Below the pieces are notes generated by a model. It was not told where the DNA came from, did no database searches, and was given only the letters and a program-made list of their open reading frames with translations. Both the position numbers and the translations under genes were made by a program. Positions 16,429 through 22,937 of a stretch of DNA of 64,000 bases are shown here, in pieces (the stretch's first letter is position 1; every line of letters starts with the position of its first letter). Origin of the DNA: Myxococcus fulvus (GTDB lineage: Bacteria; Myxococcota; Myxococcia; Myxococcales; Myxococcaceae); the NCBI RefSeq assembly GCF_900111765.1, contig NZ_FOIB01000002.1, forward strand, positions 744,001 through 808,000, in the 5' to 3' direction.

Positions 16429-17520
16429 TCAGCCCGCCTTGCGCGGCCACACCGGGCCTATCTGGTCCTGGTGCGCGAAGATGGGCGGGTCCGCCTCGTT
16501 GGTGAAGGCGCGCAGGCGGCAGTACTCCGGATACGACGCCTGCACCGTCAGCACATCCCCCGCGCGCATGACCTCGTCTCCCACCGGGTGGAGCTGCTCG
16601 TGGCCGTCGCGCATCAGCGACAACGCCAGCCCGCCGAAGCGGTCTCGAATGGCGGAGATGTTCAGCCCCGGCAGGCCCTCGCGCGCCTCGAAGAGCGACA
16701 CCACCATCAGGTGCTTGCCCAGGTGGAACGAGTGGATGATGCGCGGGTCCATCGCCGCCAGCGCCATCGCGGGCGCAGCCAGCGACGAGCTGGACAGGGC
16801 CTCCGCCTTGAACGTGTCACGCACCTTGCCGCTCAAGTCCTCGTCGAACAGGCGGATGACGACGCGGATGTTCGGGTTCAACTTCCGCGCATCCAGCGCG
16901 ATGTTGAGGTTCGCCAGGTCGTCGTCCGTGGCGCACACAATCGCGGAGGCGTGCTTCACGTTCGTGCGCGGCAGGCACAGCGGGCTGCGCGTGTCGTCGA
17001 TGAGCAACGGCACGTTCTCGTCCCGCAGCGCGGAGACGAAGGCCGCGTCCTCGCGCTTCTCCACCACCACCACGTCCTTGTCCATCTCCCGAAGCTGCGT
17101 CACCACGCGGTAGCCCACCCGCCCCGCTCCGCACACCACGACGTGGCCCTTCATCGTCTCGGTGACCACTTCGATCCACTCCTTGTCGTTCTTGTGTCGG
17201 GCGAAGTAGAGGTAGGCGAAGCGCACCACGCCGTCCGCCACCAGGGCGATGCCCGCCGGCGGAATCACCACGTTGAGCGCCTCGATGGCCCAGTCGTGCA
17301 CGTACGGCAGCGACGGCTGCCCGTAGAGCAGGAAGTAGACGTGGTGCAGCGCCTCTCCGAAGGAGATGGGCACCCCGTCCGGGCCGATGTAGCGCCAGTG
17401 GAACAAGAGCGGCCCCAGCACGAACAGCCCCGCCGCCAGCACCAGCGTGGTGCGGAAGCGGCGCAGCAACGCGCGCAGGTAGCGCAGGTTGGCTCTCAGG
17501 TGTCTTCGGGAGCCGAACAT
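16429..17520 (-). CDS. RCK/TrkA-N domain ion-channel-like membrane protein
   Basis: 363 residues. Two transmembrane helices (about 25-42 and 85-105) are followed by a cytoplasmic RCK domain with the Rossmann motif GAGRVGYRVV near residue 130 and acidic loops CATDDDLANL, then a TrkA-C domain in the last 100 residues. This is the layout of MthK-type potassium channels. The loop between the helices, where channels carry TVGYGD, instead reads HHVYFLLYGQPSLPY, so the selectivity filter is not recognisable. It is the last gene after tatB and tatC, 16 nt downstream of tatC. It could be a divergent cation channel or an RCK sensor that no longer conducts. Confidence 0.85.
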   Translation of the reverse strand: MFGSRRHLRANLRYLRALLRRFRTTLVLAAGLFVLGPLLFHWRYIGPDGVPISFGEALHHVYFLLYGQPSLPYVHDWAIEALNVVIPPAGIALVADGVVRFAYLYFARHKNDKEWIEVVTETMKGHVVVCGAGRVGYRVVTQLREMDKDVVVVEKREDAAFVSALRDENVPLLIDDTRSPLCLPRTNVKHASAIVCATDDDLANLNIALDARKLNPNIRVVIRLFDEDLSGKVRDTFKAEALSSSSLAAPAMALAAMDPRIIHSFHLGKHLMVVSLFEAREGLPGLNISAIRDRFGGLALSLMRDGHEQLHPVGDEVMRAGDVLTVQASYPEYCRLRAFTNEADPPIFAHQDQIGPVWPRKAG

Positions 17521-17536
17521 GGCCTGCCGCCCCTCC

Positions 17537-18742
17537 TCAGGACACCGGGGTGATGCCGGTCTCCGCCGCGTTGCGCGCCCGGCGCCGCTCCACCAGCCAC
17601 ACCAGGAAGACGCCCAGCTCGTAGCACATCAGCATGGGGCCAGCCATCAGCGACAGGTTCACCACGTCACCCGTGGGCGTGATGATGGCCGCGGCGATGA
17701 GGCAGAAGACGAACGCGTGCCGCTGGTACTTGAACAGCCAGCGCGACTGCACCACGCCCACGATGCCCAACAGCGCCATCACCAGCGGCAGCTCGAAGAT
17801 GATGCCGAAGGCCAGGATGAGCAGCAGCACCAGCGACAGCTGCTCGTGCATCGTCAGCATGGGCCGCGTCCACCGCTCCGCCTCGTGCCGCGCCTCGCCC
17901 GCCGACAGCTCCTTCTCCAGCTTCCACAGCCCCGACAGCTCCTCGCTGCGCGTGGGGGCCACGCCCGCCAGCAGGCTCGCCGCCTCGTCCATGGCCACCG
18001 ACGCCGCCAGGTAGTCCTGCTTGCCGTAGGCCGTCACCGCCGCGACCTTCTTCTCCACCGCCTGCCGCAGCACCGCGCGCGACTGGACGCCGTAGCCGTC
18101 CGCCGCCGCGTCCAACAGCTTGCCCAGGCCATCCAGCCGCGACTTCAGCTCCACCGCCTGCGACGGCGAGCGCGCGGGCTCGGTCAGCTGCCCTTCACCC
18201 TCCGCGCGCAGCGACGCGCTGGTCTCCTTCGCGAGCACCCCCGCCCGCTCCGCGTCACCCACGCGCAGGAAGCGCAGGGCGTCATCGGCGCGCAGCCTCG
18301 CCGTGTCCAGCCGCTGCTCCAGCGCGAGCGTCTCCTCCTCGTTGAGGAGGAACTTGAACATGGAGGGCAGCACCGCGAAGTAGCAGAAGCACGCGCCCAG
18401 GATGAACGCGAGCGAGCCGAACAGGACGAACGGCGCCGCGTACTTGCGCTCCTCCGGGAAGAGCCCCGGCGAGACGAAGCCCCAGATCTGCCAGAGGATG
18501 ACGGGCGTGGTGAGGAACACGCCGCAGTACACGCCCACCTTCATGAGGACGTTCAGCTCCTCGATGCCGGAGGTGTAGATGAGGGCGCGGTTGCCTTCCG
18601 GCAGCGCATCCAGCACGGGCCGCATCAGCACGCCGAAGATGGGCTTGGCGAACAGCAGCGACACCAGGCCCAGCCCGAGAACGGCCAGGGTGCACTTGAG
18701 CAGACGCGAGCGGAGCTCCGACAGGTGCTCCATCAAGCTCAT
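17537..18742 (-). CDS. tatC: Twin-arginine translocase subunit TatC with large internal insertion
   Basis: 401 residues against about 250 for ordinary TatC. The N-terminal signal-peptide-binding elements are intact: LSELRSRLL at residues 7-15 and FVSPGLFPEERK at 89-100. Helices continue normally to FAVLPSMFKFLLN (about 122-134). Residues about 136-297 then form a hydrophilic, helix-forming block before the family sequence resumes at LSLVLLLILAFGIIFELP. From TatC topology the block lies in the periplasmic loop between helices 3 and 4. The protein is the membrane receptor for folded twin-arginine proteins, working with TatB. It lies 39 nt downstream of tatB in the same operon. The insert is rich in Ala, Leu, Glu and Arg and may be coiled coil. 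Confidence 0.93.
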   Translation of the reverse strand: MSLMEHLSELRSRLLKCTLAVLGLGLVSLLFAKPIFGVLMRPVLDALPEGNRALIYTSGIEELNVLMKVGVYCGVFLTTPVILWQIWGFVSPGLFPEERKYAAPFVLFGSLAFILGACFCYFAVLPSMFKFLLNEEETLALEQRLDTARLRADDALRFLRVGDAERAGVLAKETSASLRAEGEGQLTEPARSPSQAVELKSRLDGLGKLLDAAADGYGVQSRAVLRQAVEKKVAAVTAYGKQDYLAASVAMDEAASLLAGVAPTRSEELSGLWKLEKELSAGEARHEAERWTRPMLTMHEQLSLVLLLILAFGIIFELPLVMALLGIVGVVQSRWLFKYQRHAFVFCLIAAAIITPTGDVVNLSLMAGPMLMCYELGVFLVWLVERRRARNAAETGITPVS

Positions 18743-18781
18743 CCGCAGCTCGGAGTCGGCGAGAGGCTGGGGACTCAGGGG

Positions 18782-19336
18782 TCAGCTCCGTTTCGGCGCG
18801 TTGCGCGCCACCGTTCCAGGCAGCGGCGCGAGTCGAGGCAGGCCATCCGCGCCCACGCTCTCGGTGGCGGCGGAGGGGGATGGAGAAGAGGTCGGCTCGG
18901 CGGGCTGCGGCTCGGGCGGCTGCAGGTCCGGCTGCGTCTGGGCGACAGGCTCGGGGAGCGCGGGGTGCTCGTCGCCGTCCAGGCCCAGCGGGGCGCGGGA
19001 GCGAGGCGTCTCCACGGCGGGCTCGGCACCCGGCTCGGCGCCCGGCTCCAGGGGCGGGGCGGCCTGCTGCAGGCCCTCGGGCGGCAGCGCCTGGGGCGCG
19101 GGCGAGGGCGGGAAGGCAGGCGTGGGACGCACCGGAGGCGGAGGCTCGCGGTTCAAGTCCTGGTCCATCGTATAGAACTCGCGCTCCACCACGTTGCGGA
19201 CCTCGTCCGTCTGGCGACGGAACTCCCGCATGAACTTGCCGATGGCACGCGCCAATTCGGGCAGCCGCTGCGGCCCGAGGATGAGCAGCGCGGCCACCGC
19301 GATGAGCACCATTTCGCCTGCGCCGATGTTGAACAT
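18782..19336 (-). CDS. tatB: Twin-arginine translocase subunit TatB-like
   Basis: 184 residues. The family part is residues 1-60: MFNIGAGEMVLIAVAALLIL, with the membrane-buried polar Glu8 typical of TatB, the GP hinge (LGPQRLPEL), and an amphipathic helix (ARAIGKFMREFRRQTDEVRN). The remaining 120 residues are a Pro/Ala/Glu-rich tail without clear structure, longer than in most TatB proteins. With TatC it forms the twin-arginine signal receptor. The annotation as TatB rather than TatA rests on Glu8, the MFxIG start and the linkage to tatC. No second tatA-type gene is present in this window, so either it is elsewhere or this protein serves both roles. Confidence 0.85.
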   Translation of the reverse strand: MFNIGAGEMVLIAVAALLILGPQRLPELARAIGKFMREFRRQTDEVRNVVEREFYTMDQDLNREPPPPVRPTPAFPPSPAPQALPPEGLQQAAPPLEPGAEPGAEPAVETPRSRAPLGLDGDEHPALPEPVAQTQPDLQPPEPQPAEPTSSPSPSAATESVGADGLPRLAPLPGTVARNAPKRS

Positions 19337-19372
19337 GTCCTGACGGCTCTCCCCGAAGCAGCCCGGTTTATC

Positions 19373-19393
19373 GCGCCCCAGGCCCCCTGGCGC
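19373..19393 (-). terminator. Possible terminator after MFS gene
   Basis: CCAGG and CCTGG form a 5-bp stem with a CCC loop, extended by GCG/CGC beyond a 2-nt bulge. It sits in the 132-nt gap between the MFS stop and the tatB start, read on the minus strand. No U-tract follows, so support is modest. Confidence 0.3.
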
Positions 19394-19468
19394 AACCGCT
19401 CGACGCTTCCGGACGTCCGCCCGACACCGTGGCCGGGGGACGGCCGGGCCCTTTCCAAGGGCCTGAGA

Positions 19469-20752
19469 CTACTGGTGTGGGTGCGCCTGGGGAGACAGGG
19501 GGACGGCCAGCCCCTGAGAAGCAGGCACCGCCAGGGCGCGCGCCTGCTCCCGGGAGCGCACCTGCCGCTCCACCACCCACAACGTCGGCGGCAGCACCAC
19601 CGTCAGGCCCATGCACACCCAGGCCACGCGCGTCATCCCGCCCAGGGTGCCGTCCGGCAGGTCCGTCAGCAGCTGCGCGCTGAGGAAGGCCCCCACCGCG
19701 GAGGCCATGTGCTGGATGGCGGACTGCAGCGACATGAAGCGCGCGCGCACCGGGTTGTCCGGCACGCGCGAGGTCAGCGTGTTGTAGGACACGTTGCGCA
19801 CGCCCATGGCGGTCATGAAGAGCACGAAGAGCAGCGGAATCGGCAGCCAGCGCGGGTAGTCCACGAAGCCCACGTAGGTCGCCACCAGCAGCAGCGCCGA
19901 GCCCGCCGTCCCCAGCTTGAAGGCGCCGTAGCGGTCCACCAGCGGCCCCGCCAGCCGCAGCGTGACGAAGCTGACGATGCCGCCCACGAAGTACGGGAAC
20001 CAGAGCAAGTCCCTGGGGTAGCCCAGGTTCTGCTGGAGGTAGGCGGAGATGTTGGGGATGAGCACGAAGCCCGCCATCATCACCACCGCCGTCATGACGT
20101 AGGACAGCTGCACCTCGCGGCGGCCGAGCAGCTCCAGCACGCCCACGCTCTGGACCGGCCCGGCGGCGCCCGTCAGGTGTCCGCGCATCGGCGGCAGGAA
20201 GAAGATGGCGCCCACCACCACGAGCAGGCCCAGGACCGCGACGACGAAGAACGGCAGGCGCCAGCCGCCATGCTCCGCCAGCTTCAGCGCCATGGGCACG
20301 CCCGCGACGGAGGCCACGGAGAACGCGCCCATCACCGCGCCCAGCGCGCGTCCGCGCCGCTCCACCGGAATCAGGTCCGCGATGATGGACAAGGACAGCG
20401 ATGTGGCGGGCCCGCCGAAGATGCCCGCGGCCACCCGGGCGAGCATCAGCGTGGACAGCCCCGTGGCGAATCCTCCCGCCGCCGTGGCCACCACCAGCCC
20501 CAGCATGGACACCGCCAGCGCCTTGCGCCGGTCGTACCGGTCCAGGAAGTAGCCGCCCAACAGCCCCGCGACGCTGGCCGCCGCCGTGTACGCGCCGCCG
20601 ATGGTGCCGATGTGCGAGGAGGCGATGCCCAGGCCCTTGGCGAAGTCGGGCCCCAGCGGCATCACCATCACGAAGTCCAGGATGTTGACGAACTGGACCG
20701 CGCCAATCAGGAAGACCACCCAGCGCTCGGACACCTGTCGCTCTGTCGGCAT
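19469..20752 (-). CDS. MFS transporter
   Basis: 427-residue inner-membrane transporter with about 12 predicted helices. The loop 2-3 motif is DRYDRRKAL near residue 72, and the proton-antiporter-like stretch RGRALGAVMGAFSVASVAG begins near 138, typical of drug/arabinose efflux MFS members. The C-terminal 30 residues are cytoplasmic and unconserved. ATG 20752 begins directly before helix 1. It lies 40 nt downstream of the chemoreceptor gene on the same strand and could be cotranscribed. Likely a small-molecule efflux proton antiporter; substrate cannot be read from sequence. Confidence 0.88.
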   Translation of the reverse strand: MPTERQVSERWVVFLIGAVQFVNILDFVMVMPLGPDFAKGLGIASSHIGTIGGAYTAAASVAGLLGGYFLDRYDRRKALAVSMLGLVVATAAGGFATGLSTLMLARVAAGIFGGPATSLSLSIIADLIPVERRGRALGAVMGAFSVASVAGVPMALKLAEHGGWRLPFFVVAVLGLLVVVGAIFFLPPMRGHLTGAAGPVQSVGVLELLGRREVQLSYVMTAVVMMAGFVLIPNISAYLQQNLGYPRDLLWFPYFVGGIVSFVTLRLAGPLVDRYGAFKLGTAGSALLLVATYVGFVDYPRWLPIPLLFVLFMTAMGVRNVSYNTLTSRVPDNPVRARFMSLQSAIQHMASAVGAFLSAQLLTDLPDGTLGGMTRVAWVCMGLTVVLPPTLWVVERQVRSREQARALAVPASQGLAVPLSPQAHPHQ

Positions 20753-20792
20753 GTCCTCCAGTCCTTAAGCCATTCACGGGCCGCGCGCACGG

Positions 20793-22937
20793 CTAGACAC
20801 GGAAGCGGCGCACCTCACCCCGGAGGATCTCGGCCTGCCGCTGGAGGTTGTCGATGGCCTCCTCCAGCTGCTTGACGGAGCGTGTCTGGTGCTCGGAGAC
20901 GCCCTTGATGGTCTCCACCGCCTTGAGCACCTGCTCGCTGCCCTTGGTCTGCTCCTTCTGGGCGCGGTTCAGGTGCGTCACCATCTCGTTGATGCTCTCG
21001 ATGGAGCGGGTGATCTGCTTGCTGCCGTGCGCCTGCTCCTGGCTGCTGCGCTGCACGTGGGCGGTGAGCGCCTTCATCTTCTCCGCGCTCTTCATGATCT
21101 GCTCGCCGCCCTTGGCCTGCTCGTTGGAGGCCTTCGAAATCTGCTGCACCGTCTCGCTGATGCGGTGGATGGAGGCCGTCACCTGCTTGCTGCCGCGGGC
21201 CTGCTCCACGGTGGCGCGCGCGATGGCCTTCACCATCTGCGTGGACTTCTGGGTGCTGTCGTTGATTTTGCGCAGCGCCCCTTCCGCCTCGCGGCCCAGC
21301 TGCACGCCCTCCTCCACGTTGCGCGCGCCCTGGTTCATCACCACCACGGCGTTGCGGCTCTCCTCCTGGATGCTGCGGATGAGCTCGGCGATCTCCTTCG
21401 TGGACGCGCCGGTGCGCTCGGCCAGGTCCTTGATCTCCTCCGCCACCACGGCGAAGCCCTTGCCGTGGTCGCCGGCCTGCGCGGCGATGATGGCCGCGTT
21501 GAGGGCGAGCAGGTTGGTCTGCTCGGCCACGTCGTCGATGACGTTGAGGATGTTGCCAATCTCGGAGATGCGCCGGCCCAGGCTGTCGATGACGTCCGCG
21601 GCGGCGCGGCTGGAGCCCTTGATGCGGTCGATGCCGGTGAGCGTCTTGCGCAGCGCCTCCACGCCCGTCTGCGCGTCGTCGAAGACCTGCTCGGACAGGC
21701 GCGCGGTCTCCTTGGCGTTGGCCTCCACCTGGCCGATGGCGGCGTCCATCTGGCTGATGGCCGAGGACGTCTCCTCCGTGGAGGCGGACAGCTCCTGGAT
21801 GTTCTTGGCGACCTCCTTGATGGAGAAGGTCATCTCTTCAATCGCGCTGGTGGTCTCCTCCACGCTGGCGGCCATGGCGGTGACGTTCTCGGCCACCTCG
21901 TCGTTGGTGGCGGCCATCTCCATGATGGAGGAGCTGCTCTCCTCGGCGCTCTGGTAGAGGACCTCCACGTTCTCCGCGATGCCGCGCAGCGAGGCCATCA
22001 TCTCCACCATGGAGGAGGACGTCTCCTCCACGCGGGCCTGGACGGTGCTGGCGCCCGAGGACACGGTGGTGCCGGTGCGGTGGATCTGCTCGATGACGCC
22101 CGCCACCACGTCCGACACGCCGCGCACCCTGCCCAGCGTGTCGCGCCAGCTCTGGGCGATGCGATTGAGCGCCTCGGCGAGCAGGCCCAGCTCGTCGCGC
22201 GAGCCCACGTCCACGCGGCCCGTCAGGTCCGCCTCCGCCAGCCGGCGCGCCATGGTCATCATCGCGTCCAGCGGCACCAGGATGAACGCGCGCGAGATGA
22301 AGAAGGCCACCACGAGGAAGAGCGCCAGGCCGATGCCGAACGCCAGCAGCACCACGTGCCGCAGCGAGGTGACGACCTCCTCCAGCGAGCTGAAGTTCAC
22401 CGCCACCAGCACGTGGGCTGGGCCCTCGTGCAGCGCCACCGGGCGGACGCTGGCCTTGTTGCCGTTCTCGAAGACGGCGCCGTCCAGCGCGGCGGGGTCC
22501 TTCGACGGCTGCTCGCGCAGGTTGTTGAGCAGCCACCCCTCCGCGCTCGGCGGGTGCACGGCCTGCACGCGGCCATCCGGGGTGATGAGGGCGATGAGCG
22601 CGAAGTCGTCGTCGCCGCCGTGGAGCGACTCCAACAGGGGCGGCAGGATGGTGAGGGAGAGGTTGGTCAGGTCACGCGATGCCTGGAGCGCCTTGTCGTC
22701 GCCGTGCTTCGTCAGGCGCGTCTCCAGGAAGTCCTCCACCCGGGACGGGACGACGAAGTAGAGCGTCCCGAGGATGAGGGCGAGCACCACGGCGAAGGAG
22801 CCGAGCAGGATGCTGCGCAGGCCGGGTTTCTTGAAGCGCGGAGCCAAGGCGGGCCACTGTAGGAATGGAAACACCGGCAGGGCAAGAACCGGAGCCAGGC
22901 TCCTCGGCCGCCCCTCCGCCCGGCGGGAGCCTGACAT
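20793..22937 (-). CDS. Methyl-accepting chemotaxis protein
   Basis: 714-residue chemoreceptor. TM1 is about residues 42-63, a periplasmic sensor about 64-190, TM2 about 194-214, HAMP about 215-270, then a long helical signalling domain. The kinase-control tip reads [20 protein letters not shown] where well-studied receptors have AAxEAARAGE, so the Glu and Arg used for trimer contacts in Tsr are replaced by Ile and Gln. The C-terminal 180 residues contain a repeated pattern ([32 protein letters not shown]) about every 28-35 residues. The N-terminal 40 residues are an unusual hydrophilic or Pro-rich extension. No che genes are adjacent, so the partner kinase is not in this window. Confidence 0.93.

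What the first reader, a model, noticed from the sequence alone, without database searches (positions are those of the whole stretch)
17537..18742. TatC with about 145 extra residues in a periplasmic loop
All core TatC motifs are intact, but between helices 3 and 4 the protein gains a hydrophilic, probably helical block (about 136-297). This loop lies near the site of TatA assembly, so it may add a regulatory or cargo-selecting domain suited to the many secreted proteins of myxobacteria.
Basis: partly seen in the sequence, partly recalled or inferred. Interest (0 to 1): 0.6.

Follow-up and report, generated by a model that had tools for sequence, protein, structure and literature searches.

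The report
Myxobacterial TatC with trimerising periplasmic insert
This is a normal protein-export membrane protein (TatC) carrying the extra periplasmic domain long known from Myxococcus; a 2026 paper solved that domain and showed that it helps three TatC copies hold together, so the finding is real but already described.

Summary
On the minus strand, 17537-18742 encodes a 401-residue TatC. Between TM3 and TM4 (loop P2) it has 158 residues (135-292) where relatives without an insert have 7, a net gain of about 151. It is not an artefact: the frame is open and under purifying selection across the whole clade.

It is already known. Kneuper et al. 2012 reported a 183-residue P2 loop in Myxococcus xanthus TatC. 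Deme et al. 2026 solved the M. xanthus TatBC complex (9E03) and this insert alone (9E0S): a homotrimer that augments TatC-TatC contacts and caps the complex. The window protein matches 9E03 end to end (E 3.5e-205), and the predicted insert matches 9E0S and 9E03 (Z 24-25).

New here is only the natural history. The insert occurs in four families of one order, probably from one gain (95/88 support). It is absent from the other families of the phylum searched, and evolves faster than the core.

Most likely it is a structural clamp. A separate Myxococcota family has an unrelated insert in another TatC loop.

The parts
17537..18742 (-). tatC, 401 aa, with stop codon
   Evidence: Pfam PF00902 E 1.3e-60; phmmer to M. 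xanthus TatC 9e03_A over residues 1-401, E 3.5e-205
17867..18340 (-). P2-loop insert, TatC residues 135-292, helical periplasmic domain
   Evidence: absent from TatC of families f2-f6; matches 9e0s_A E 2.8e-77; predicted model matches 9e03/9e0s at Z 25.2/24.1
18782..19336 (-). tatB (TatA/B family, 184 aa), directly upstream of tatC, 39 bp gap
   Evidence: PF02416 E 7.6e-14; partner of TatC in the solved M. xanthus TatBC complex

Best explanation
The gene is an ordinary tatC whose product carries the Myxococcus-type P2 domain. The domain lies in the periplasm, continues from the end of TM3, folds as a six-helix unit, and returns into TM4. Three copies pack together on the threefold axis of the (TatBC)3 core complex, so the domain acts as a clamp that strengthens TatC-TatC association and caps the periplasmic face. 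Shown in M. xanthus by others: fold, homotrimer, position, added TatC-TatC contacts. Shown here: the window protein is the same domain by sequence and predicted fold, and it was probably gained once in the ancestor of four related families. Inferred: that stabilisation is what selection maintains.
For: Full-length match to 9e03_A (E 3.5e-205) and insert match to 9e0s_A (E 2.8e-77); predicted insert fold matches both, Z 25.2 and 24.1, with nothing else above Z 6.7. Deme et al. [quoted passage not shown]). Every TatC found in the insert-bearing families has it, with one gain on the core tree. Purifying selection, dN/dS 0.15-0.44.
Against: No deletion of the insert has been tested in a published work that I found. 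The insert diverges far faster than the core (18-31% identity where the core is 54-69%), and in the small-genome genus g23 it is only 18-20% identical, which a strict interface might not allow. The added contacts were seen in detergent, from protein made in E. coli.
Confidence: 0.65

Rival explanations
1. The insert is a tolerated decoration: periplasmic TatC loops accept extra sequence at permissive points, and the domain is kept folded only so that it does no harm. It has no important role in export.
For: TatC periplasmic loops vary widely in length across bacteria (P1 14 to 248 aa, P2 19 to 183 aa; PMC3712464). Unrelated inserts arose in P1 in another Myxococcota family and in one further genome, and in N. 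salsuginis, where the insert is disordered. Relatives in the same order lack the insert and have a complete TatC. The insert evolves faster than the core.
Against: No loss of the insert alone was seen in any TatC-positive genome of the four families; dN/dS stays well below 1; a defined trimer with conserved positions (G162, A167, R202, L225, A235, W273) is more than filler.
Confidence: 0.22
2. The domain is a sensor: an anion or other periplasmic ligand on the threefold axis changes trimer stability and so tunes Tat activity.
For: The crystal structure has a sulphate on the threefold axis with coordinating side chains (PMC13323110 Extended Data Fig. 1 legend). Conserved basic positions exist in the insert (R144, R157, R202).
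Against: Sulphate is a common crystallisation additive; no ligand role was found in the passages read; which residues coordinate it could not be read here; R144 and R157 are not kept in all lineages.
Confidence: 0.08
3. One reading: the insert selects cargo or guides TatA assembly.
For: Only the position: it is periplasmic and close to the exit side of the complex.
Against: [quoted passage not shown] TatA and TatB occupy sites between TatC subunits, TatB at TM5/TM1 and not at P2 (PMC13323110). Those substrate-bound structures are of E. coli and N. salsuginis, so an effect special to myxobacteria is not excluded.
Confidence: 0.05

Closest known systems
Myxococcus xanthus TatC P2 periplasmic domain (PDB 9E0S; TatBC complex 9E03)
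   Same: Same gene, same insertion point, same length, same predicted fold; window protein aligns over its full length without a long gap. Same neighbours, MFS-tatB-tatC, as M. xanthus MXAN_5906-5904.
   Different: Only species-level sequence differences (model to 9E0S 71-72% identical in the Foldseek alignment).
Nitratifractor salsuginis TatC periplasmic insert (PDB 9E02)
   Same: A large insert in a TatC periplasmic loop.
   Different: A different loop (before query residue 65, that is in P1), unrelated to the M. xanthus insert and disordered.
Ordinary TatC without insert (E. coli 9DZZ, Aquifex aeolicus 4B4A/4HTS)
   Same: Six-helix core, both halves match.
   Different: P2 loop of about 19 residues in E. 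coli (PMC3712464), no added domain.

Membership tests
TatC (PF00902) | Both halves of the TatC profile in one open frame, in order | tested here: met
   205 bits, two stretches, profile 1-132 and 133-208
TatC (PF00902) | Conserved functional residues of the core (E. coli P48, F94, E103, E170, D211) | tested here: met
   P42, F89, E98, E317, D359 invariant in 55 relatives; the mapping to E. coli numbers is own knowledge
TatC (PF00902) | tatB partner next to it | tested here: met
   18782-19336 minus, PF02416 E 7.6e-14; two more TatA/B-family genes elsewhere in the genome
Myxococcus-type TatC P2 domain (9E0S) | Insert in the P2 loop between TM3 and TM4, homologous in sequence | tested here: met
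Myxococcus-type TatC P2 domain (9E0S) | Same fold | tested here: met
   Foldseek E 1.6e-14, Z 24-25 to 9e0s/9e03
Myxococcus-type TatC P2 domain (9E0S) | Homotrimer on the TatBC threefold axis | not testable with these tools
   Only single-chain models could be made; inferred from about 71% identity to the solved domain
PTS lactose/cellobiose IIA (PF02255), considered as an origin of the insert | Significant profile match across members | tested here: inconclusive
   2 of 13 inserts match, best E 4.2e-4, not the window protein; not among the listed fold matches

The most novel reading that the evidence does not exclude
The domain is a conditional lock rather than a passive clamp: periplasmic ligand or anion binding on the threefold axis tightens or loosens the TatC trimer and so gates Tat export in myxobacteria.
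Probability: 0.07. Interest if true: 0.6.

Novelty: already known. Interest (0 to 1): 0.15.

Why it matters
Little for novelty: the loop length was reported in 2012 and the structure in 2026. The distribution found here gives it context. It is a trait probably gained once by part of one order, kept by every member whose TatC was found, and contrasted with close relatives that do without it, so those relatives are natural controls for testing whether a TatC clamp changes export. [quoted passage not shown]

Tried and rejected
Frameshift or gene-calling artefact: rejected, open and conserved frame. Domain of known Pfam family: the window insert has no match at E 0.5; scattered weak hits in single members, best PTS_IIA 4.2e-4 in two. 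Other fold relatives in the PDB: none above Z 6.7, which for helical bundles means nothing; DUF4398 protein PA2901 (4fm3) matches 65 residues at Z 5.7 and was not pursued. Non-TatC proteins with the insert: two weak genome hits (G074, G060) lie in GC-rich DNA with several overlapping open frames; only one of the two reproduced with a rebuilt profile, over 66 residues, and both were set aside as probable spurious frames. The full-length single-chain model is only moderate (pLDDT 73.8, pTM 0.50) and was not used. Cargo selection: no support. Receiver-domain origin of the unrelated P1 insert in family f17: profile comparison gave 2.4% probability, not shown. One search was a mistaken two-sequence alignment and carries no information; the tree program failed and was rerun; the receiver extraction failed and was redone.

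Full report
WHAT IS THERE. Window 17537-18742 on the minus strand is an open frame of 401 codons from ATG to stop. Pfam calls it TatC with 205 bits, but in two stretches; the genome search shows the profile broken between positions 132 and 133. Between the two halves lie residues 135-292, window 17867-18340. TatCs of neighbouring families have 7 residues there. Hydrophobic segments place the extra block between TM3 and TM4, so in the periplasmic P2 loop by the standard N-in topology of TatC. It is hydrophilic and predicted as six helices at mean pLDDT 87.7.

A frameshift artefact is excluded. The same frame is open in every relative found, with no stop inside the insert, and the insert is under purifying selection (dN/dS 0.15-0.44; core 0.08-0.24).

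IT IS ALREADY KNOWN. Kneuper et al. 2012 (PMC3712464) state that the P2 loop ranges from 19 residues in E. coli to 183 in Myxococcus xanthus. Deme et al. 2026 (PMC13323110) chose M. xanthus TatBC because of this insert, solved the complex by cryo-EM (9E03) and the insert by X-ray crystallography (9E0S), and found a homotrimer with a sulphate on its threefold axis. They write that TatC interactions are augmented by contacts between the inserted domains, and that the domain would block exit through the centre. A 2026 review uses the same fact against a central pore (PMC13186574). The window protein matches 9e03_A over residues 1-401 at E 3.5e-205 and 9e0s_A at E 2.8e-77. The predicted insert matches both structures (Foldseek E 1.6e-14; Z 24.1 and 25.2).

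DISTRIBUTION, WHICH I DID NOT FIND PUBLISHED. In the window's order, 136 of 145 genomes have a TatC match. Families f1 (to which the window's genome belongs; its near relatives are named Myxococcus and Corallococcus records), f7, f8 and f9 match over the whole protein; families f2 to f6 match only in two pieces around the gap. A profile of 13 inserts finds the domain in 97 of 195 genomes of the phylum, all in those four families, although TatC itself is found in 173 of 189. Genomes of the four families without the insert have no detectable TatC at all, so none shows loss of the insert alone. On a tree of 223 core columns with the insert left out, the 25 insert-bearing sequences form one clade (95/88), nested among sequences without it: one gain explains the data.

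CONSERVATION. The insert changes faster than the core. Against the most distant members it is 18-31% identical where the core is 54-69%. Conserved insert positions include G162, A167, R202, L206, D211, L225, A235, W273 and L279.

MECHANISM. Best supported is a structural clamp: three inserts hold the TatC trimer at its periplasmic face. Shown in M. xanthus by others: fold, trimer, position, contacts. Shown here: homology and fold of the window protein. Inferred: that stabilisation is the selected function; no insert deletion was found in the papers searched. Substrates associate through signal peptides only, and TatB sits at TM5, the TM5-6 loop and TM1.

A SIDE FINDING. Family f17 of the same phylum has an unrelated insert of roughly 130 residues in the other large periplasmic loop, P1, in all five TatCs seen (four genomes). 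Its strand-helix sequence pattern looks like a receiver domain to my eye, and a histidine-kinase chain appears in the PDB search at a non-significant E of 0.047, but a profile comparison with receiver domains does not support this (probability 2.4%). The two insert families are not related. One f3 genome, G033, has a third, shorter P1 insert.

Noticed in passing
L131-L135 (genomes G161-G164, family f17 of the phylum): TatC with an unrelated insert of roughly 130 aa in loop P1, alternating strand and helix in pattern, found only in family f17. Fold and origin unknown; a receiver-domain origin is not shown.
   Followed up: partly
L132 and L133 (genome G162): Two different tatC genes in one genome assembly (6% contamination estimate), both with the P1 insert.
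   Followed up: no
L136 (genome G033, family f3): A third TatC insert, about 75 aa in P1, with an internally repetitive look, in one genome only.
   Followed up: no
L039, L040 (genus g23, genomes of 2.1-2.7 Mb): Small genomes of the window's own family keep the P2 insert, but it is only 18-20% identical to the window's and shorter.
   Followed up: no
own genome, C9:134686-134808 and C2:606040-606171: Two further TatA/B-family genes outside the tatBC locus; which is the working TatA is not settled.
   Followed up: no
window 19469-20752 minus: MFS transporter next to tatB, as MmrA (MXAN_5906) is next to tatBC (MXAN_5905-5904) in M. xanthus.
   Followed up: partly
window 17489-20875 plus: A 1128-codon open frame antisense to tatC, tatB and the MFS gene; most likely an effect of high GC.
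   Followed up: no
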